A stretch of DNA of 64,000 bases from Bdellovibrionales bacterium GWA1_52_35 (GCA_001769805.1 MEPO01000028.1:1-64000); one strand, 5' to 3'. Shown: positions 17,241 through 64,000, counted from the first letter of the stretch. Made by a program: numbers and translations. Notes: generated from the letters alone by a model not told the origin.

Positions 17241-17598
17241 TGGTGGAGACGGCGGGAGTTGAACCCGCGTCCGAAAGCAATCAATCGCCAGAATCTACAT
17301 GTGTGTTTCGTGTTTTTGATTGAGTCAGTGGCGTCCACGAACAAACTACGCTGACCCTCCGCCGACCATTGGTTCGCCTCTCAGGCGCCTGCGATACCTG
17401 AAAGGCTAGCCCACTAAATGACGTTCTATCCCAATCCGTGGGCGAAACCGGGTAGAACGCGTAGCTTAGATTAACGAATTAATTAAGCTGCGAGTGCGTA
17501 ATCGTTGCCAATTACTAGTTGCCATTTTTTTACGAGGCCTATGGCACCTCGACATGCATCTGGGACGTCAATACTCCCGTCGAAGCCGTATCGTCCCC
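17241..17598 (-). ncRNA. ssrA: tmRNA (transfer-messenger RNA)
   Basis: The 5' end reads GGGGACGATACGGCTTCGAC and the 3' end reads CCGCCGTCTCCACCA with an encoded CCA, the two halves of the tRNA-like domain. The T-loop TTCAACTC is visible near the 3' end. The tag frame lies at 17483-17509 and reads GNDYALAA followed by TAA, if GGC is the resume codon. The YALAA end is the usual protease signal. Total length of about 358 bases is normal. tmRNA with SmpB rescues stalled ribosomes. The gene is followed directly by hicBA. Confidence 0.95.
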
Positions 17599-55093: not shown

Positions 55094-55122
55094 TCTAATA
55101 CACTGGGGATTAAAGTATTAGA
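55094..55122. promoter_or_regulatory. Perfect 8-base inverted repeat, operator-like
   Basis: TCTAATAC (55094-55101) and GTATTAGA (55115-55122) are exact inverse copies with a 13-base spacer, so the half-sites lie 21 bases apart, two helical turns. The repeat stands 32 bases before the lipoprotein at 55154. No T run follows, which argues against a terminator for lpdA. Confidence 0.5.
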
Positions 55123-55153
55123 CAAAGTTAAATATGTTAATTAATATTAATGC

Positions 55154-56047
55154 ATGAGCAATCGCTGCATTCATATTAATAAAGCAAGTGGAATAGCCTT
55201 GGTTCTATGCCTGGTTTTCGCAGGTGGATGTTCAAAAAAGAATGTTCCAAAGGACCAAGAAGCAGTTTCACCTTCAGGCGCAGCAGTTCAGCAGGATGCT
55301 CAGCCATCCATTCAGCCTTCTGCTCCGTCATTGGCTACCGAGAGTGTAGTTCCTGTTCAGGGAAGTGGGGCGGCACCAGCTGCTCCCGCAGTCCCCGGTG
55401 CAAAGCCCGGTGCACCAGCGGCACCTCTGATCGCTCCAGGAATACCGGTAGCTCCAGGTCTGCCGGGTGCTCCGGCTGTTGCACCGATTCCGTCGGGAAC
55501 ACCGAAAGCTGCTGCCGAGGTCAAGAAAGAGCCTGAGCCAGAGTGCTTCAGCATCGCCTTCCGCCATAAAAAAGTGGGCGGTCACTCCAGCAATGAAGAT
55601 TGCTCCCATCATAAGAACCTGCTTCGCCTCAAACATAAGAATGTCAATCCGGCGGCGATCTGCGTTCGTGTGAATGCCCGTCCCGTAGCCTTCAAGCAGG
55701 TCAAGGGTGCAGCGAGTGATCTGCTGATCGGTTCGATCGCAGGTCCGGAAGCAAAGATTCTGGTTAGCTATTGCGTTAACAAGGCCCGCTGCAATGACGA
55801 ATGCAAAGTTCCCAGGGACGAATTCATGGATGCGATTGGCGGAAGTGAAGAAGAATCAGCCAAAGCCGGCAAATGGGATTCTGGCGATGCAAACGCCCGT
55901 GATGTCGCTTCCGCTAAGATGGATGCCGAAATTCGCAAAGAGATGGCCGATATTGATGCCGAAGAAGATGTATTCGCCGATTGGATTGGCGATGCAGAAA
56001 CCGTTTTGGTTTGTCAGCTGAAGGCTAAACCCAAGGCGAAGCACTGA
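55154..56047 (+). CDS. Pro/Ala-rich lipoprotein of unknown function
   Basis: The 297-residue protein has a lipoprotein signal (SGIALVLCLVFAGGCSKK, lipobox AGGC). Residues about 40-130 are a flexible Pro/Ala/Gly linker (GAAPAAPAVPGAKPGAPAAP), long enough to reach across the peptidoglycan. A folded C-terminal domain has several Cys (PECFSIAF, NEDCSHH, AICVRV, SYCVNKARCNDEC). The end is acidic. No family is recognised. It heads a run with a VWA lipoprotein and the TolQ/TolR-like genes, 6 bases before the next gene. Confidence 0.7.
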   Translation: MSNRCIHINKASGIALVLCLVFAGGCSKKNVPKDQEAVSPSGAAVQQDAQPSIQPSAPSLATESVVPVQGSGAAPAAPAVPGAKPGAPAAPLIAPGIPVAPGLPGAPAVAPIPSGTPKAAAEVKKEPEPECFSIAFRHKKVGGHSSNEDCSHHKNLLRLKHKNVNPAAICVRVNARPVAFKQVKGAASDLLIGSIAGPEAKILVSYCVNKARCNDECKVPRDEFMDAIGGSEEESAKAGKWDSGDANARDVASAKMDAEIRKEMADIDAEEDVFADWIGDAETVLVCQLKAKPKAKH

Positions 56048-56053
56048 GGAGTT

Positions 56054-57652
56054 ATGAACAGCAGGACCATGCTATTAACGCTTTTGACCGCTGTCTTCGC
56101 GACTGGTTGTACCGGCCAGATCCCGAATTCATTTCGTCTGAGGCAGCAGGAAGAGGCGTTCAGCTCCCAGCTCCAGATTAATACCAAAATCGATCTTCTC
56201 TGGGTCGTTGATAATTCCTCCAGCATGGATGTATCGCAGGAAAAATTGCGGCAAGGCTTCCGAGGCTTTGCGGAAAAATACATGAAGCCGACCTGGGATA
56301 TTCGTATTGCGGTCATTACAACGGATACGTATCTGGCGGATTACAGATTCAATTCGTATTTGGAGACGGTCGTTCCTGGCACGGCTGATTTCAATCCCGA
56401 TACAGGCAGTTATTGGCAATCGTCTTACATGGCTTCAAAAAACCGTGCTGTTTGGAATCCGCTCTACAATCCCGTTACTCAGGCCTTTGACAATCCTTCG
56501 AGCAGCTATATTGGCGTGAAAATTCGCGACATGGTTCCGGTCTGGGATACGAGTTATGCGAAGCTGCAAGCCGGAAATCATGATGGACCGATCCCGGGTC
56601 TTTGTTTTGAGGGGCTTCCATACTTTCTTTTTGGTGTGACTGAATGCGCGATTCGTGATGACCAGGCGCGGTTTGGCGTTGCTTCCTGTTTGACCCCGGG
56701 AGCGGATCAGAGTTCGATCAGCGAATGTGTAAATACGGTCGAGAATAACACGGTCCGTTCGGGTAAGCCCATCCTGAGTACGACCCCCGCGGCTGATTAT
56801 ACTGGAACAAAGGAAGCCTGGACTGAGCAACTCATTGCAGACTTCCTGGTGAATATGACAACCGGGAGCGTGGGACACGGCTCTGAAAGAGGCCTCTCCT
56901 CGGTGCTGCAGCTACTCACGGACAACGAATCCGGAGATACCCGATTTTTCCGTAAAGGCGCATTACGCGGAATTATTTTTGTTTCCGATGAGGATGACCA
57001 GAGCATGGTAATCCCGGAAATTCCTGCTCCGGGTTTTTCTCCTTATACTGATTACACAACAGCCTGTGCCGCCAAAGACATTGAAGGGGCATCGCATACG
57101 GTGGCCTCCTGTCCGCTTACGGACAGCCTGATCCCTGTTGAGAACGTGAAATCGCAAATTGACGAGTTTTTTACGGCTCTTGATGAGACTGCGGTGGAAG
57201 AAGCAGCGAAAAGCTACTTCGTGGCTTCGATCGTTCCAAAGACAATGGAAGTGATCAATGCTCTGCAGGCCAGTCGTGATCTGGATGATATTGCTGTCGG
57301 CGCGCCTCTCAAGAAAGCCGTGGACCGCGGCGATCGCTATATCCAATTGGGAACTCTCGTTGGCAATGGCTCGGTTGCACTTGATATTGCAGGCGACTAC
57401 TCGCAGGTTCTGGATGTCATCGGTAGGGCGATCATCGAGAACAAGAGTACATTCACCCTGGAGCGCGCACCCACAGGTACGGAAGACATGATTGTAAAAG
57501 TTCTGCATGAAGACGGGACTACCACCATTATCCCTAGCGACAAGTACGTCGTGAGTGGAAAACAATTGATCATTACAGACCAGGATCTAGTTCTGGGTTT
57601 CAGCTCAACCGATCAGGTTCTGATCAATTATCAGCCGAAAACCCTTTATTGA
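56054..57652 (+). CDS. Lipoprotein with von Willebrand factor A-like domain
   Basis: The 532-residue protein has a lipoprotein signal (MLLTLLTAVFATGCTGQ, lipobox ATGC). A VWA-like domain begins at IDLLWVVDNSSSMDVSQEKL, where DNSSSM is the metal-ion-dependent adhesion site; IIFVSDEDDQSM follows. The domain has a long insertion, and a C-terminal beta-rich region reads DKYVVSGKQLIITDQDLVLG. It sits at the outer membrane or inner membrane facing the periplasm. Its position directly before the TolQ/TolR-like genes suggests that it is a stator, load or substrate component of that machine. Confidence 0.8.
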   Translation: MNSRTMLLTLLTAVFATGCTGQIPNSFRLRQQEEAFSSQLQINTKIDLLWVVDNSSSMDVSQEKLRQGFRGFAEKYMKPTWDIRIAVITTDTYLADYRFNSYLETVVPGTADFNPDTGSYWQSSYMASKNRAVWNPLYNPVTQAFDNPSSSYIGVKIRDMVPVWDTSYAKLQAGNHDGPIPGLCFEGLPYFLFGVTECAIRDDQARFGVASCLTPGADQSSISECVNTVENNTVRSGKPILSTTPAADYTGTKEAWTEQLIADFLVNMTTGSVGHGSERGLSSVLQLLTDNESGDTRFFRKGALRGIIFVSDEDDQSMVIPEIPAPGFSPYTDYTTACAAKDIEGASHTVASCPLTDSLIPVENVKSQIDEFFTALDETAVEEAAKSYFVASIVPKTMEVINALQASRDLDDIAVGAPLKKAVDRGDRYIQLGTLVGNGSVALDIAGDYSQVLDVIGRAIIENKSTFTLERAPTGTEDMIVKVLHEDGTTTIIPSDKYVVSGKQLIITDQDLVLGFSSTDQVLINYQPKTLY

Positions 57653-57673
57653 TTTGAATAGAAGGAGAAAGAC

Positions 57674-58387
57674 ATGAGCGGATTTTTTGAGTTTCTAAAG
57701 ACAAGTTTCTTCCACGTTGCTCCTATTTTGTTTGTAGGAGCGATCGGTATTGCGATCATTATCGAGCGTTCGCGGGCTCTTTTTTCGGTTTATCCGATCA
57801 AAGACCAGCGCGGATTCTTTGATAAAATGACAGAGCTCGTCCTGGCGGGCAAAATGGGCGAGGCCCTGAGTCTCTGTGACCGGATGCCGGCCAAACCGGT
57901 TGCTCAGGTCATGAAGCAGGGCTTGCTCCGCGCACATCAGCCGGAATCCCTGATTGAGCACGGGCTGCAGCTCGCCGTGGGCGACGTGACCCAGCAGGTC
58001 CAGAAACGTACGGCGTTTCTGGCGACGATCGCCAATGTGGCCACGTTGTTGGGTCTTTTTGGTACCATCGCAGGTCTGATTGCTTCGTTCGAGGCCGTCG
58101 GTGCCGCAGACCCCCAGCAGAAGTCCGCCATGTTGGCCGCCGGTATTTCGCAAGCCATGAATGCCACCATGCTCGGGTTGGGTGTGGCCATTCCGGCCAT
58201 GATCGCTTTCAGCTTTTTAATGAATCGCTCGAACCGCATGATTGCCGAGATTGATCATGCAGCCGTGCATGCCGTTGATATTCTGAAACAGCGCTATTAC
58301 GCCGTTGAAACCGAAGTTCTTGCTGCCGAAAGCTCCGGAGCCAGCGTGACCCGGATCCATCCTGAAAAAGCCGGGAGAGCCGCATGA
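57674..58387 (+). CDS. TolQ/ExbB/MotA-like proton-channel protein
   Basis: The 237-residue protein fits the MotA/TolQ/ExbB family: an N-terminal membrane helix (HVAPILFVGAIGIAIIIERS), a cytoplasmic helical region, then two helices with NVATLLGLFGTIAGLIASFEAV and MNATMLGLGVAIPAMIAFSF. These build a pentameric proton channel. GAAGGAG lies before the ATG. It overlaps the next gene by 4 bases. The arrangement with two TolR-like genes is like AglR-AglQ-AglS of gliding motility, rather than a Tol-Pal cluster, since no TolA, TolB or Pal is seen. Confidence 0.93.
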   Translation: MSGFFEFLKTSFFHVAPILFVGAIGIAIIIERSRALFSVYPIKDQRGFFDKMTELVLAGKMGEALSLCDRMPAKPVAQVMKQGLLRAHQPESLIEHGLQLAVGDVTQQVQKRTAFLATIANVATLLGLFGTIAGLIASFEAVGAADPQQKSAMLAAGISQAMNATMLGLGVAIPAMIAFSFLMNRSNRMIAEIDHAAVHAVDILKQRYYAVETEVLAAESSGASVTRIHPEKAGRAA

Positions 58388-58854
58388 GCGGAGCAGTCGA
58401 TTCCGGCCAAGGCGGGAAAGGTAAAGGCGGCAGTCAGGATTTTGATCTGAACCTGGCGCCGATCATTGACTCGTTCACGGTTTTGATCGCCTTCATGCTG
58501 GTCTCGGCTTCCTTTCTTTCGATCGGAATTCTGGATGCCGGTATCTCGGCTGCGGGGGTTGCGCCAACTTCGGATGCGCCCCCATCAGTGAATCTGACGG
58601 TAGAAGTTGCAGCGGATCAGCAGCTCATCCTGAAATTGGCTGGCAAAAGCGATGCCAAAGTGAGTCTTGCTGCCAAAGATGGAAAATATGATCTTCCGGC
58701 ACTTACGGAAAAAGTCGGCGGATATCGCAAGCAGTGGACTGATCTGAACGCGGTGACGCTGGTATCGGCTGATACCGTCCAGTACAAAGATGTCGTTCAG
58801 ATCATGGAAGCTTTGCGTAAAAATGTTCCCGTGGTTCTGTTGGGAGGGTTCTGA
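58384..58854 (+). CDS. TolR/ExbD-like protein, first copy
   Basis: The 156-residue protein has a single membrane helix near the N-terminus (APIIDSFTVLIAFMLVSASF) containing the conserved Asp of ExbD/TolR, then a periplasmic domain (SVNLTVEVAADQQLILKLAG, VSADTVQYKDVVQIMEALRK). It starts within the end of the TolQ-like gene (ATGA overlap). The helix length and Asp suggest a working proton-path partner. The domain differs from the second copy. Confidence 0.88.
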   Translation: MSGAVDSGQGGKGKGGSQDFDLNLAPIIDSFTVLIAFMLVSASFLSIGILDAGISAAGVAPTSDAPPSVNLTVEVAADQQLILKLAGKSDAKVSLAAKDGKYDLPALTEKVGGYRKQWTDLNAVTLVSADTVQYKDVVQIMEALRKNVPVVLLGGF

Positions 58855-58857
58855 GTC

Positions 58858-59361
58858 GTGAAGAAATCTTTTTTAAAAAAACGGGCGCCCCAAAGTGAAG
58901 ATATGGCCCTGCAGATCACTTCCATGGCCGACATTTTCATCATTGTCCTGGTATTTCTTTTGAAGGGGTACTCGACAGGCGCGATCACGGTTGCGCCCTC
59001 CGCAGGCTTGTCGCTTCCCCAGGCTGAAACCCAGGATGCCTCCGTAGAGGCACTGAAGGTGGAGATTACAGAGGGAGCAGTTCAGGTCGAAGGGCAGCAG
59101 GTTGCCAAACTCGAGCAGTTCCGGTTTGACAAGGGGGATCTGCAGGCTACCGGAATTTCAACCGCCCTCGGTCAGGCGATTTCGCGGCAACGCGAGAAGC
59201 AGCTCTTGATTGCCAAGGCCAATTCCGACGTCAAGGTTGATGCCAAGATCATGATTCTTGCGGATCAGCGGGCTCCGTATTCCACGGTTAAAACCGTATT
59301 GGCTTCCGCGGCCGTGCACGGGTACACCGATTTTAAATTGGCAGTGGTGAAGGGGGACTGA
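58858..59361 (+). CDS. TolR/ExbD-like protein, second copy
   Basis: The 167-residue protein starts at GTG 58858, 3 bases after the first copy. The membrane helix is TSMADIFIIVLVFLLKGYST with the conserved Asp. The periplasmic part has an ExbD-like fold (QLLIAKANSDVKVDAKIMIL, VKTVLASAAVHGYTDFKLAV). Two different TolR-like genes after one TolQ-like gene is the pattern of AglQ/AglS. It is followed 5 bases later by the large TPR-like gene. Confidence 0.9.
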   Translation: MKKSFLKKRAPQSEDMALQITSMADIFIIVLVFLLKGYSTGAITVAPSAGLSLPQAETQDASVEALKVEITEGAVQVEGQQVAKLEQFRFDKGDLQATGISTALGQAISRQREKQLLIAKANSDVKVDAKIMILADQRAPYSTVKTVLASAAVHGYTDFKLAVVKGD

Positions 59362-59366
59362 TTCTG

Positions 59367-62300
59367 ATGTCCCGCCGATTCTGTGCTTTAGTTGTTCTTT
59401 TTGCATTCTTCTTTGGGGCGGCTCCCGAGGCGCTGGCCAAATCACTCTCAACTCCCGAGGGAATGCAGGTGCGCAACAGTGCAGAGCGCAACGAAGAGTA
59501 TGAACGCGACGTCGACCAGGTGGCCTCGGCTTCCCAAGAACAGGCAATTGCCAAACTTTCAAATCTGCTCAGGAAGTACCGGGACACCCCGCAAGAGGCA
59601 GGTCTTCTGGCAAGATTGGCGGATTTTCAGCAGCAGTATTCGGCGATTCTTTTCCGGATCGGCCATGGCTATTCCAAGAGAACCGGGGGCTCAGACCTGA
59701 CCCGGTACAATAAATCGTTGCAGCAGAGTATTTCCACGCTGAACACGCTTGTAAGAAAATATCCCTCTTACGAAGGGGTTCCTCATGCCTATTTCATGCG
59801 TGCCAAAAATCTGGACGAAATCGGCAAAAAAGCGGCTTCGGTCGCGGATTATCAATACCTCGTAAACAATTTTCCGGAAGCCGAGGATACACCGGCCGCT
59901 TACATGGCGCTGGCGGAGGTTTCCATTATTGCCAATGATCACCCCAAAGCCATTCACTACCTGGGCGAGGTAGAGAAACTTCCGGATGACCCGCATTTTC
60001 CTTTCGCGCTTTATAAGCTCGCCTGGTCTCAATACAACCTGAAAAACGTCGGCCGTGCACTGGCTTATCTCGAAAAGCATATCGCGTATTACCGGGAGCT
60101 GAAGTTGGAAGCGACGACTAAGGGTTTTGTGGTTGAGCAAGACGCCGTCAATTCAGATCGCGCGCTCCAGGAAAACTCCCTTTTGGATATCGTTCTCTTC
60201 TATTTCGAAGGTTACGAGCAGAAGGACCCGCAGTATCAATTGTCCGATACCTTGAGTTACTTCAGAAAACTGGAGCCCGGCCCGGTATTTGGAAGAATGC
60301 TGGTCAAAATGGCCAAACTTCTCCGTTCGCATGGTCACGAGGCGGATCTGGTTTCCTGGAAAGACCAGGTTTTGCTTGCTGAAAGCAGTTTACCTGAATC
60401 GCTCGAAGTGGCTCTCACCACCTACGAATACCAGCTGAACAAGCGCAGATATCCACAGGTCGTCGAATCGGCACGCGACTTCATCAAAGTCTATTCCAAA
60501 CACGGCGGTAAAGAAGGCTTCATGCCGTTGTTCACTCAGGCGCAAAAGCTCTTGCTGGATACCGCCGAAGGGCTGCAGGCGATCATCATCAAGAACAAGG
60601 GCAATGAAGAAGCAAAACCGCTGAGCGCCACCTTGGCCGCAATTTATGAGTCGTTTACCCGAATTGTGGACGACAGCGATCTCAGGGTGCCCAGAGTTCA
60701 CTACAATCTTGCCGAAACCCTGTTTGCCATTCAGGATTACGAAGGTGCAACGGAGCATTATCGCTGGGTCGCTCTGCGCGGCGAAGGTGATGCTGACGCG
60801 AGTTTGAAGGCGATTGCCTCCCGTTACGAAGTTCTGCGGCTGAAGCAGCTTGCAGACCGGGAGATCAAAGCCAGGAAACTGCCGGCTGACACGACGGGTG
60901 ATGAAAGCCAGTCCATCCAGAATGCTGATCTCGACAAGCGACTTCTGCAATGGATCGCCTGGATCGATACGCATTATGACAAATATCACAGCCGGAAACC
61001 GGCTGATTCGGAGAAAATAGAATCATTCCTTTTTGAGGCGGATCGCGCCCTGTATGTCAACGGTCAGACGGCGGCGGCAACCCAGCGCTTGAGGAAGTTT
61101 GCGGAGAAAAATCCAAAATCCAAATTCGCGATTCCCGCTGCAACTCTTGTTGTCGATACCTATATCATCACTGCCAACTGGGAGAAGACCCATGAACTCG
61201 TCCTGGAGTTCCTGGAGGAGAAAGCCTGGAAGGGGGGAAGTTTCGAAACCCGGCTCGCCGGGTTGGCCGCCGATTCCTATTTTAAAGTCATGGAAGAAAA
61301 GTTCGGACGAAAGGAGTACGCGCAGGTCCTGAAAGACTCGGGAAAGTTCCTTAAAAAGTATGAAAAAAGTGAGCGCCTTCCGGATGGGCTCCGGCTCGCG
61401 GGACAATCCGCCCTGGCGATCGGTGACAAGCTGCTGGCAAAACACTATTTTTCACGTCTGATTCAAGAGCGGCCGAAAGCCGACGGATTTGGGGATGCTC
61501 TTCTGGCCCGTGGATCACTCGCTGAGGAAAACCATGAATTCAAGGCAGCCGCGGCCGATTACAGCGGTTTCCTTGGTTTAAGCGCAGAGAGCTACCGGAA
61601 AGCCCAGACCGACACCCTTCGAAAGAAAGTATTGATGTTAACCTGGCTCGCCGGAAATACGGGCGAGCTGCGGGCTCTTTTAGGAAATAAAGCGGTTTGC
61701 ACTGATAATTTGACAGAAGACTGCGAAAAATTTGAAGCATTAGTCGGTCTTGCGACTCCGGAAAGGTCCGGGAGTCAGGAGGACGCAGAAAAGGCTCTCA
61801 AGCGGGCCAAGGCAGCGTCTGGCGAAAACCGGGTCTTCTGGGCACTGGTGGGCCTGGAGGGTGCAAAGCATCTTGAATATCGTGATCGAGTGTATTTAAT
61901 CCGCCAGGTTGCTTCCAATTGGGATGATCTGGAGTCCATTTCCAAGTACGCCGTCCTGCCCCAGGTTTCCCGGTCAGTAGCGCGAGCCTTTGCATTCAAC
62001 AGGCAGGAAATGAGTGAAATCGCCCCGCTTCGCGCCAATGAGCGGTACATCAAGCGACGTGTTGAGGTGATCCGGGAGATGGAAAACGCCGCCACCAAGG
62101 CGATGAACCTCCCATGGGTAAGAATTCGAGCCGAGTTGCTCAATGAAGTAGCCCAGCTTTATCTTGATTTCTCAAAAGATCTGGCCAAACTTCCACCTCC
62201 CAAGAATATGCCGGCTGAGGATATTGCGCTTTATGAAGATACTGTCAGGAAACTCGTCCTACCTTTCGAAGAAAAGGGCCAAGACCTCCGACGGAAAGCT

Positions 62301-62906
62301 TTTGAGCTGGCCTCCAAATTTGCAGTCGAGGACGATTTGTTGAAAAAAATCGTCGACCCTTTCTTCGCTGAGAACCCATCTCAGGCAAAAAGTCTGAAGT
62401 CGAGTGTCGTCCTCCCTCCTCCCGCAGAGCTCGGTCTGGGTTACCTTTCTGTTTTGGATCCCACTGGGAACTGGAAAGTTTTTCTGAAGCAAAGCCCGAA
62501 AGAAATCATTTTTGAGATCACACAACCGGAAATGCGCCTGAAACAACTTTGGGTCACTGCATTATCTGCCAGTAACTGGCCCCAGATCGCGTTTGTGATG
62601 TCTGAAGCGAAAGACAAGAAGGCAGTGTCCGACGGAACTCTTTCAGTGATGCGCGCCATCGCGTTATCTCGCGCAGGTGCAAGAGCGGAAGGTTTATTGG
62701 AACTTGATGCAGCGAGAAAAGACCTGTCACCTGAGTCAGGCAATAACGTTGCATTGACCTTGATTGGATACTCCGCGCGCGCCTATTCGAAAGAACGGAT
62801 TTCTGAATGGCTGAATGCGCTGAAATTAGAGCAGTTGAACCAATATCAGAAGAACGCGATGATTGCTGCGTCTGCTTTCATTGGTGTTGAAATAAAAAAA
62901 CATTAG
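59367..62906 (+). CDS. Large exported TPR-like repeat protein
   Basis: The 1179-residue protein has a signal peptide (RRFCALVVLFAFFFGAAPEALA). The mature part is almost wholly helical, with TPR-like pairs: YMALAEVSIIANDHPKAIHY, FALYKLAWSQYNLKNVGRAL, VHYNLAETLFAIQDYEGATE and LPDGLRLAGQSALAIGDKLL. About ten or more repeats can be guessed. It is a likely periplasmic scaffold for the motor encoded just upstream, as Glt-type TPR proteins are in gliding bacteria (inference). The gene ends the cluster. Confidence 0.8.
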   Translation: MSRRFCALVVLFAFFFGAAPEALAKSLSTPEGMQVRNSAERNEEYERDVDQVASASQEQAIAKLSNLLRKYRDTPQEAGLLARLADFQQQYSAILFRIGHGYSKRTGGSDLTRYNKSLQQSISTLNTLVRKYPSYEGVPHAYFMRAKNLDEIGKKAASVADYQYLVNNFPEAEDTPAAYMALAEVSIIANDHPKAIHYLGEVEKLPDDPHFPFALYKLAWSQYNLKNVGRALAYLEKHIAYYRELKLEATTKGFVVEQDAVNSDRALQENSLLDIVLFYFEGYEQKDPQYQLSDTLSYFRKLEPGPVFGRMLVKMAKLLRSHGHEADLVSWKDQVLLAESSLPESLEVALTTYEYQLNKRRYPQVVESARDFIKVYSKHGGKEGFMPLFTQAQKLLLDTAEGLQAIIIKNKGNEEAKPLSATLAAIYESFTRIVDDSDLRVPRVHYNLAETLFAIQDYEGATEHYRWVALRGEGDADASLKAIASRYEVLRLKQLADREIKARKLPADTTGDESQSIQNADLDKRLLQWIAWIDTHYDKYHSRKPADSEKIESFLFEADRALYVNGQTAAATQRLRKFAEKNPKSKFAIPAATLVVDTYIITANWEKTHELVLEFLEEKAWKGGSFETRLAGLAADSYFKVMEEKFGRKEYAQVLKDSGKFLKKYEKSERLPDGLRLAGQSALAIGDKLLAKHYFSRLIQERPKADGFGDALLARGSLAEENHEFKAAAADYSGFLGLSAESYRKAQTDTLRKKVLMLTWLAGNTGELRALLGNKAVCTDNLTEDCEKFEALVGLATPERSGSQEDAEKALKRAKAASGENRVFWALVGLEGAKHLEYRDRVYLIRQVASNWDDLESISKYAVLPQVSRSVARAFAFNRQEMSEIAPLRANERYIKRRVEVIREMENAATKAMNLPWVRIRAELLNEVAQLYLDFSKDLAKLPPPKNMPAEDIALYEDTVRKLVLPFEEKGQDLRRKAFELASKFAVEDDLLKKIVDPFFAENPSQAKSLKSSVVLPPPAELGLGYLSVLDPTGNWKVFLKQSPKEIIFEITQPEMRLKQLWVTALSASNWPQIAFVMSEAKDKKAVSDGTLSVMRAIALSRAGARAEGLLELDAARKDLSPESGNNVALTLIGYSARAYSKERISEWLNALKLEQLNQYQKNAMIAASAFIGVEIKKH

Positions 62907-62939
62907 TCGGACATTCACTCAAAACTCATTTTGCACATT

Positions 62940-62968
62940 TCTTGAAGTACATTCCTAGCTTATATAAT
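62940..62968 (+). promoter_or_regulatory. Possible promoter of the glycogen debranching gene
   Basis: A perfect TATAAT (62963-62968) is preceded at 17 bases by TCTTGA, a weak -35. The start of transcription would lie near 62975, about 73 bases before ATG 63048. The rest of the intergenic DNA is AT-rich. Confidence 0.4.
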
Positions 62969-63047
62969 TAAAATTCTGTATTCTCTGAAAACATTATTGA
63001 AAATTCAGAATATCACCCTTAATTATTTAGGAACAAGGAAGCTTAAA

Positions 63048-64000
63048 ATGGACAGCGTTGATCGAAGTAGTGAATGGCTTCAGGCAAACCGCTACGGCTC
63101 GTTTGCCATGGGATCCATCGACCGGATTCCTCGCCGAAAATATCATTCATTGCTTTGCATAAGAGAGCCCGGAGTGGGTGATCCGCTCAATACTATTTTG
63201 GATGTCGGTGAATACATCGAGATTAATCAGAAACTCTTCATGCTTCACAGCTTTGATTTCGGTAATCGCATCGAGCCCAAAGGTTACACGCACCTCAAGG
63301 ATTTTCAGTTTCGTCCGATTCCGCTCTGGGATTATGAACTCGCGGGGACTCGTGTCCAACGCTCAATTCAAATGGATCACGAGCAGGATACGGTACGTAT
63401 TCATTACGTTTTCAAGGGCATCAAAGAACCGGTTCGTATCCGTTTGAGGCCTTTTGTCCTTGCTCGTCCTTTTCACAAGCTGACGCAAGCCAATCCCTTT
63501 CTCAATGGGGGTGTCGTTCAAAAGGATGACACGTTCAGGTTTCAGTTTTACCAGGACATTCCGGGTCTGGTCATGCGCGTTGTGGGTGCAAGCGCCCGCT
63601 ATGCGCCCAAGGGTGAATGGGTGGAGCGGATTCATTATTCCACGGAAAACGAGCGCGGTTACCCTCATACCGAAGACACCTTTGTTCCGGGAGAGTTCGA
63701 GATCGAGATCAACCAGAACACCGAATTTTATTTTGAGATCGGCCGAGAGCTAATAGGCGATCCCAAGCTGGCTTTTGCTAAAATTCCGAATCCAGAACTT
63801 CGATATCCACTTTCAGGAAAACTGGAATGGGCGGCTGAGCAATATCTGCTCACGACCCGCAAGGGCTTTCATTCGATTATTGCAGGGTACCCCTGGTTCG
63901 GTGATTGGGGTCGGGATACTTTTATTTCGTTGGCCGGGCTTTGCATCGAAAATGGCGAGCTCGACGAAGCGGATCATATCCTGAGCAGCTATGGTGATAA
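63048..64000 (+). CDS. Glycogen debranching enzyme (amylo-alpha-1,6-glucosidase), N-terminal part
   Basis: The frame is open to the right edge, giving 317 codons of a longer gene. AAGGA lies 8 bases before ATG 63048. The N-terminal domain matches the bacterial debranching family: SEWLQANRYGSFAMGSIDRI followed by RRKYHSLLCIRE. The start of the catalytic glycoside-hydrolase domain has the hallmark GYPWFGDWGRDTFISLAGL. The enzyme removes alpha-1,6 branches from glycogen. The catalytic part beyond this motif is outside the window. Confidence 0.93.
   Translation, partial: MDSVDRSSEWLQANRYGSFAMGSIDRIPRRKYHSLLCIREPGVGDPLNTILDVGEYIEINQKLFMLHSFDFGNRIEPKGYTHLKDFQFRPIPLWDYELAGTRVQRSIQMDHEQDTVRIHYVFKGIKEPVRIRLRPFVLARPFHKLTQANPFLNGGVVQKDDTFRFQFYQDIPGLVMRVVGASARYAPKGEWVERIHYSTENERGYPHTEDTFVPGEFEIEINQNTEFYFEIGRELIGDPKLAFAKIPNPELRYPLSGKLEWAAEQYLLTTRKGFHSIIAGYPWFGDWGRDTFISLAGLCIENGELDEADHILSSYGD

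What the first reader, a model, noticed from the sequence alone, without database searches (positions are those of the whole stretch)
55094..62906. Agl/Glt-like motor cluster with two upstream lipoproteins, one bearing a VWA domain
One TolQ/ExbB-like protein, two different TolR/ExbD-like proteins and a 1179-residue TPR-like protein follow two lipoproteins with tight spacing and overlaps. AglR-AglQ-AglS is the known one-plus-two arrangement in gliding bacteria. The VWA lipoprotein and the Pro/Ala-linker lipoprotein are not part of that standard set and may be the machine's outer-membrane ends. TolA, TolB and Pal are absent, so it is not Tol-Pal. This may be a distinct proton-driven envelope machine.
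Basis: partly seen in the sequence, partly recalled or inferred. Interest (0 to 1): 0.68.

Follow-up and report, generated by a model that had tools for sequence, protein, structure and literature searches.

The report
Half of a gliding-type envelope motor
This uncultured relative of the predator Bdellovibrio carries a six-gene operon that joins the proton-driven motor of a myxobacteria-type gliding machine to an integrin-like surface adhesin gene, while the machine's remaining parts sit elsewhere in the genome; it is a variant of a known machine rather than a new one, but it names candidate adhesin genes for a gliding system whose adhesin is unknown.

Summary
Six tightly packed + strand genes (55154-62906) encode an anchored Pro/Ala-linker protein, a 532-aa MIDAS/VWA lipoprotein, one TolQ-like and two TolR-like proteins and a 1179-aa periplasmic TPR protein.

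The set is the motor half of an Agl/Glt (gliding-transducer) operon. The TolQ-like protein groups with Glt-cluster motors (100/100), apart from TolQ/ExbB. The six-gene order recurs across uncultured Bdellovibrionota, usually followed directly by GltF/CglF-GltG-OM barrel-GltC. In the window that second half is missing, but it sits as an orphan block on another contig (G000:C13:78801-83716). Two related genera also have the orphan block, and trees of the two halves agree, so one ancestral operon was split.

The VWA lipoprotein is a full-length profile homologue of the protein encoded by what I infer is Bd1483. Bd1483 is a Bdellovibrio MIDAS protein in a published agl operon (Bd1473-1483); bd1480 of that operon is surface-induced. 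The predicted VWA fold's best PDB matches are integrin beta subunits. By analogy with Myxococcus CglB it is probably the surface adhesin end; this is inferred.

The machine is therefore a known kind. New points: the expanded VWA protein, an undescribed partner family, and the split operon. Function is untested.

The parts
55154..56047 (+). LipoPA: N-terminal anchor (lipobox-like VFAGGC in the window, a plain membrane anchor in several orthologues), Pro/Ala-rich linker, conserved Cys-rich C-terminal beta domain (about residues 128-230). No known family.
   Evidence: No Pfam or NCBIfam hit; orthologues upstream of the VWA gene in 20 of 22 loci; conserved Cys 131, 170, 207, 213, 217, 287; domain pLDDT about 90; no significant fold match in the PDB.
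56054..57652 (+). VWA/MIDAS lipoprotein, proposed surface adhesin; homologous over its length to the short VWA protein of the inferred B. bacteriovorus Bd1473-1483 operon (Bd1483), with extra insertions.
   Evidence: NCBIfam MIDAS adhesin 3.7e-9 and CglD 1.3e-5; profile-profile E 1.9e-33 with the Bd1483 type; invariant DxSxS and lipobox Cys19; model pTM 0.84, best PDB matches integrin beta chains.
57674..58387 (+). AglR-type TolQ/ExbB-like proton-channel subunit.
   Evidence: MotA_ExbB 1.6e-26; tree places it with Glt-cluster motors, 100/100, apart from TolQ/ExbB; channel Thr residues kept.
58384..58854 (+). First AglQ/AglS-type TolR/ExbD-like protein; transmembrane Asp kept (APIIDSF).
   Evidence: Pfam ExbD 3.2e-13; alignment.
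58858..59361 (+). Second AglQ/AglS-type TolR/ExbD-like protein; transmembrane Asp kept (TSMADIF).
   Evidence: Pfam ExbD 6.1e-14; alignment.
59367..62906 (+). GltD-type periplasmic TPR protein, 1179 aa, signal-peptide-like N terminus.
   Evidence: TPR_6 7.8e-11; profile-profile E 2.2e-34 over 796 columns with the TPR protein of the inferred HD100 agl operon; in most relatives followed directly by GltF/CglF-GltG-OMP-GltC.
62907..62996 (.). Break point: relatives with the full operon continue here with GltF/CglF-GltG-OM barrel-GltC; in this genome a glycogen-debranching gene follows, and the missing half lies at G000:C13:78801-83716 (outside the window).

Best explanation
The locus is the motor-and-adhesin half of an Agl/Glt-type envelope machine of the B. 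bacteriovorus Bd1473-1483 kind. The AglR-type channel with two TolR-like subunits uses the proton gradient. The GltD-type TPR protein in the periplasm, together with GltF/CglF, GltG, an OM barrel and GltC from the split-off half at G000:C13, passes force to the outer membrane. There the MIDAS/VWA lipoprotein holds a surface (substrate or other cells), as CglB does in Myxococcus, so the cell glides or pulls on the contact. LipoPA probably anchors, loads or retains the VWA protein. Shown here by sequence: motor identity, conserved gene order, the split operon, and VWA homology to the Bd1483 type. Inferred: complex formation, surface exposure, adhesion, gliding, the role of LipoPA, and that the C13 half serves the window motor.
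For: The TolQ-like protein groups with motors of GltC/GltG-containing clusters and of the inferred HD100 agl operon (100/100), away from the own-genome and E. coli TolQ and E. coli ExbB. Motor Asp/Thr residues are kept. In most relatives the six genes run straight into GltF/CglF (NF033764 3e-5), GltG (NF033760; NF033768 above cut-off), OMP_myx_plus (above cut-off) and GltC (NF033756). Split operon: orphan second halves in G000, G019 and G005 form one clade (100/99) with the same branching as the three matching motor halves (100/99; 98/97 against 90/84), which lie among suc-linked clusters. In G000, G001, G002 and G019 close GltG copies equal cassette motors, and in G005 they do if the cut-off C68 motor is counted. 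A scan with the VWA profile alone gave 22 loci; 19 are next to motor or Glt genes, 2 are cut by contig ends. Co-occurrence of long VWA and cassette motor in the family: 25/27 against 1/8, Fisher p 4e-5, not corrected for relatedness. Published: the Bd1473-1483 agl operon (PMC2797640), bd1480 surface-induced (PMC9140294), Bd1483 a lipobox MIDAS protein in the surface secretome (PMC11003981). An MglA-like GTPase 58% identical to that of the inferred HD100 genome is present.
Against: No experiment; gliding is unknown in this uncultured lineage. M. xanthus sequences themselves could not be retrieved, so AglR/GltD identity rests on curated NCBIfam models for neighbours and on Bdellovibrio homologues. 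No Roadblock/MglB was found, but it was also not found in the inferred HD100 genome. Deleting bd1483 gave no predation defect (PMC11003981). Some clusters lack a linked VWA gene (L027, L030, L034, L038), though in three genomes it is encoded elsewhere. GltE, GltI, GltH and GltK were not identified. The tree of second halves does not firmly place the orphan clade inside the suc-linked clade.
Confidence: 0.6

Rival explanations
1. A Glt-core machine that is not a motility device: as in the many non-gliders with a Glt core, or as in the M. xanthus sporulation relative, the motor moves or remodels an envelope component (for example surface polysaccharide), and the VWA protein is a periplasmic or outer-membrane binding partner rather than an adhesin.
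For: The Glt core occurs in bacteria without known gliding, and a closely related system serves sporulation in M. xanthus (PMC3169522). This genome has at least three further Glt-type motor clusters, at C24, C22 and C7, so not all need serve gliding. bd1483 deletion has no predation phenotype (PMC11003981).
Against: The Bdellovibrio counterpart operon contains surface-induced bd1480 (PMC9140294), and Bd1483 was found in a surface secretome (PMC11003981). The MIDAS architecture is integrin-like.
Confidence: 0.3
2. A separate vWA force-transducer system, as described in PVC bacteria and Proteobacteria (TPR + TolQ + two TolR + inner-membrane-tethered vWA protein driven at the motor's side).
For: The same gene types occur side by side (PMC12204202). 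LipoPA orthologues with a plain membrane anchor, Pro-rich linker and C-terminal domain have a TolA/TonB-like layout.
Against: Here the VWA protein has a lipobox and no transmembrane tether or SHLS motif was seen. It is homologous to Bd1483 over its length, and the operon continues into GltG/GltC in relatives. LipoPA has no TonB_C/TolA hit and no PDB fold match.
Confidence: 0.07
3. An ordinary Tol-Pal or Ton locus.
For: The best curated models for the TolQ-like protein are tolQ/exbB.
Against: All are far below cut-off (76.9 bits against 221); the tree separates them (100/100); two different TolR-like genes and GltD/GltG/GltC company; a separate TolQ/TolR-type locus exists at C13.
Confidence: 0.02

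Closest known systems
B. bacteriovorus HD100 agl operon Bd1473-Bd1483 (PMC2797640; Bd1483 in PMC11003981; bd1480 in PMC9140294)
   Same: In the genome inferred to be HD100: VWA/MIDAS lipoprotein first, then one TolQ-like, two TolR-like, a large TPR protein, a small protein, GltG and an OMP (L064); VWA and TPR are profile homologues over all or most of their length.
   Different: HD100 has a GYF/PilZ protein between VWA and motor and no LipoPA there; its VWA is 353 aa against 532; its first TolR-like protein lacks the membrane Asp; its operon is unbroken, whereas the window operon is split.
Myxococcus xanthus AglRQS-GltA-K gliding machine with CglB/CglD (PMC3169522, PMC4488436, PMC13104615)
   Same: One TolQ-like + two TolR-like + large periplasmic TPR protein (GltD 1191 aa), with GltG, GltC and OM barrel parts in the split-off half; VWA lipoprotein as the adhesin type.
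   Different: In M. xanthus the motor (M1), G1 and G2 sets are encoded apart; GltE, GltI, GltH and GltK were not found here; no direct M. xanthus sequence comparison was possible.
vWA force transducers next to TolQR-like motors (PMC12204202)
   Same: TPR + TolQ + two TolR + vWA neighbours.
   Different: Those vWA proteins are tethered in the inner membrane; this one is a lipoprotein homologous to Bdellovibrio MIDAS adhesins.
Tol-Pal / Ton-ExbBD
   Same: Shared motor superfamily.
   Different: Separate branch in the tree; no TolA/TolB/Pal/TonB at the locus; two different TolR-like genes.

Membership tests
Agl/Glt machine | One AglR-type plus two AglQ/S-type subunits in one operon | tested here: met
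Agl/Glt machine | TolQ-like subunit branches with Glt-cluster motors, not TolQ/ExbB | tested here: met
   (100/100); M. xanthus AglR itself not available, long outgroup branches
Agl/Glt machine | GltD-type periplasmic TPR protein of about 1200 aa | tested here: met
   (against the inferred HD100 operon, not M. xanthus)
Agl/Glt machine | GltG with AgmX/PglI (TonB-like) C-terminal domain | tested here: met
   Not in the window; orphan copy at G000:C13, NF033768 above cut-off; assignment to this motor by tree congruence only
Agl/Glt machine | GltC and OM beta-barrel | tested here: met
   Only in the split half at C13: NF033756 5.8e-13 (below cut-off), TIGR04565 above cut-off
Agl/Glt machine | GltE | tested here: inconclusive
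   No hit among the proteins scanned; whole genome not searched for it
Agl/Glt machine | Drives gliding or another force-dependent process | not testable with these tools
   needs experiment
MIDAS/CglB-type VWA surface adhesin | Lipobox plus DxSxS MIDAS motif in a VWA fold set in a beta-rich domain | tested here: met
MIDAS/CglB-type VWA surface adhesin | Above the curated model cut-off (Bd0875-type NF052240 or CglD NF033765) | tested here: not met
   36.2 of 700 bits and 23.3 of 400 bits: a homologue, not that equivalog
MIDAS/CglB-type VWA surface adhesin | Surface exposure and binding | not testable with these tools
   needs experiment
Tol-Pal | TolQ equivalog, TolA/TolB/Pal linkage | tested here: not met
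vWA force transducer (PMC12204202) | vWA protein tethered by a transmembrane helix with SHLS motif | tested here: not met
   Lipobox Cys19 invariant in 19 orthologues; no SHLS-type tether seen by eye

The most novel reading that the evidence does not exclude
LipoPA and the expanded MIDAS lipoprotein form a dedicated adhesin module, encoded with the motor, that couples the Glt machine of Bdellovibrionota to surfaces, with LipoPA as a new kind of force-transmitting or adhesin-gating protein (TolA/TonB-like layout, no known fold) that is absent from Myxococcus.
Probability: 0.2. Interest if true: 0.68.

Novelty: new variant of a known kind. Interest (0 to 1): 0.45.

Why it matters
[quoted passage not shown] The gene order found here, conserved across several families of the phylum and traceable to the inferred Bd1473-1483 operon, places a MIDAS lipoprotein in the same operon as the motor. 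That makes the Bd1483-type proteins (and the VWA gene bd3099, PMC9140294) direct candidates for the CglB-like adhesin, testable by deletion in a laboratory predator. The 2024 study of Bd1483 tested predation and, in the passages found, did not connect it to the gliding operon. The split operon gives a natural test of which half-machine belongs with which motor.

Tried and rejected
Tol-Pal and Ton were rejected by tree, curated models and a separate own-genome locus. A minimal machine lacking GltG/GltC was my first reading; it was rejected after finding the orphan second half in three genera. Reciprocal exchange with an alpha-glucan gene cluster as the cause of the split: both break points lie beside alpha-glucan genes, but none of the relatives tested shows the two glucan genes on one contig, so it is unproven. 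LipoPA as TonB/TolA: no domain hit and no credible fold match (best E 0.04, low probability, meaningless). The PDB sequence search with the VWA protein found nothing. MglB/Roadblock was not found. The promoter-like matches just upstream (55119-55148) are weak and such matches are about as common in shuffles. E. coli tolQ was first fetched at wrong coordinates and then corrected.

Full report
OBSERVATION. The region holds six tightly packed + strand genes: LipoPA 55154-56047, VWA 56054-57652, TolQ-like 57674-58387, TolR-like R1 58384-58854, TolR-like R2 58858-59361, TPR 59367-62906. Upstream are sucA-sucB-lpd (as judged from their sequences and recurring neighbours), downstream a glycogen-debranching gene. 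Pfam supports MotA_ExbB, two ExbD/TolR and TPR. LipoPA hits nothing, and VWA hits the curated MIDAS-adhesin (3.7e-9) and CglD (1.3e-5) models well below cut-off.

HOST. The window is part of G000, a 3.73 Mb draft in 35 contigs. Named relatives found with the VWA profile are uncultured Bdellovibrionota such as Bdellovibrionales bacterium GWB1_55_8.

RECURRENCE. A single scan of named genomes with the VWA profile (not with motor genes) gave 22 loci. LipoPA lies directly upstream in 20. Seventeen have the TolQ-like gene directly downstream, two (L053, L054) have LipoPA-VWA at the far end of a Glt cluster, two are cut by contig ends, and one (L059) is a broken VWA gene alone. Where the motor cluster has LipoPA but no VWA (G021, G005, G020), a VWA gene sits alone elsewhere in the genome. 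In the window's family the long VWA and the cassette-type motor co-occur: 25 of 27 genomes with the motor against 1 of 8 without, p 4e-5, with no correction for shared ancestry.

WHAT IT IS. In most relatives the TPR gene is followed by a small protein (CglF model NF033764, 3e-5), GltG (NF033760 and NF033768 'AgmX/PglI C-terminal domain', the latter above cut-off), a barrel (TIGR04565, above cut-off) and GltC (NF033756). The tree of TolQ-like proteins separates Glt-cluster motors from own-genome and E. coli TolQ and E. coli ExbB at 100/100 and puts the window among the former (the outgroup branches are long). R1 and R2 keep the membrane Asp, and the TolQ-like protein keeps the channel Thr residues.

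SPLIT OPERON. In the window and in G019 the second half is missing and a glycogen-debranching gene follows. A GltG profile search found unlinked close copies in G000 (C13), G019 (C20) and G005 (C100). Each is an orphan block GltF/CglF-GltG-OMP-GltC-GYF-like (G000:C13:78801-83716). The orphan blocks form one clade (100/99). The matching motor halves (window, G019, G005) form one clade (100/99). Both trees branch as (G000,(G019,G005)). In the motor tree the clade lies with suc-linked clusters (93/83). In G005 the contig ends inside the TPR gene, so the break is not seen directly there. The simplest reading is one break of a complete operon, both halves being kept. G000 also has a complete second operon at C24 (64% identical TolQ-like protein) and more distant Glt clusters at C22 and C7.

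LINK TO BDELLOVIBRIO. Handle G118 has one contig of 3,782,950 bases, which I recognise (from memory) as the genome size of B. bacteriovorus HD100; the gene order supports this. At 1.40 Mb (L064) it encodes VWA (353 aa)-GYF/PilZ-TolQ-R1-R2-TPR (1246 aa)-small protein-GltG-OMP. This fits the published agl operon Bd1473-Bd1483 (PMC2797640), with Bd1483 a lipobox MIDAS protein (PMC11003981) and bd1480 an aglQ gene induced on surfaces (PMC9140294). The window VWA family and this VWA type align over their length (E 1.9e-33); the window type has large insertions. The TPR families align over 796 columns (E 2.2e-34).

STRUCTURE. The VWA model (pTM 0.84) has integrin beta headpieces as its best PDB matches (E about 5e-7, low global TM, so the match is probably to the VWA core). 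PMC11003981 describes Bd1483 as a MIDAS fold set into a beta-rich domain made by the N and C termini, which fits. LipoPA has one confident beta domain (about 128-230) and no credible PDB match. Its N terminus is a lipobox in some orthologues and a bare membrane anchor in others, so its membrane is uncertain.

MECHANISM (inferred). Proton flow through the AglR-type/two-TolR motor moves the GltD-containing periplasmic complex. GltG/GltC/barrel from the C13 half complete the path to the outer membrane, and the MIDAS lipoprotein grips the surface. CglB and CglD are the VWA lipoproteins of Myxococcus gliding (PMC4488436, PMC13104615). An MglA-like GTPase is present (58% to the one in the inferred HD100 genome); no Roadblock/MglB was found in either.

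VERDICT. Known kind of machine, new variant: expanded VWA adhesin candidate, an undescribed partner protein family, and a split operon. Not Tol-Pal, and not a categorically new machine.

Noticed in passing
L064 6843-7400 (-) and the matching genes in L065-L069: In Bdellovibrio-type operons the first TolR-like protein (Bd1480 'AglQ' type) has lost the membrane Asp (LDLAPLLAVMVKL), while the second keeps it; the window and other lineages keep it in both. The motor may use one protonatable subunit.
   Followed up: partly
G000:C27:166331-166918 (L096 431-1018 +): MglA-like GTPase, 58% identical to the one in the inferred HD100 genome; no Roadblock/MglB found in either genome.
   Followed up: partly
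window 62997-64000 onward, and L085 607-8645: Both halves of the split operon sit beside alpha-glucan metabolism genes (debranching enzyme, glycogen synthase-like, phosphorylase here; maltokinase and 4-alpha-glucanotransferase at C13), which hints at how the operon was broken; not proven.
   Followed up: partly
L100 8340-10163, L101 9021-10640, L102 9015-10664: VWA genes encoded alone, away from motor clusters, in genomes whose motor cluster carries LipoPA without VWA.
   Followed up: partly
L071 7396-11526: Three VWA lipoprotein genes in a row after a GltC-like gene in a genome of another family, suggesting local expansion of adhesin variants.
   Followed up: no
window 17241-17598 (-): tmRNA gene with tag GNDYALAA.
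   Followed up: no
G000:C28:80839-81750 and 80018-80839 (L020): A MotA/MotB-like stator pair lies about 17 kb downstream of the operon.
   Followed up: no
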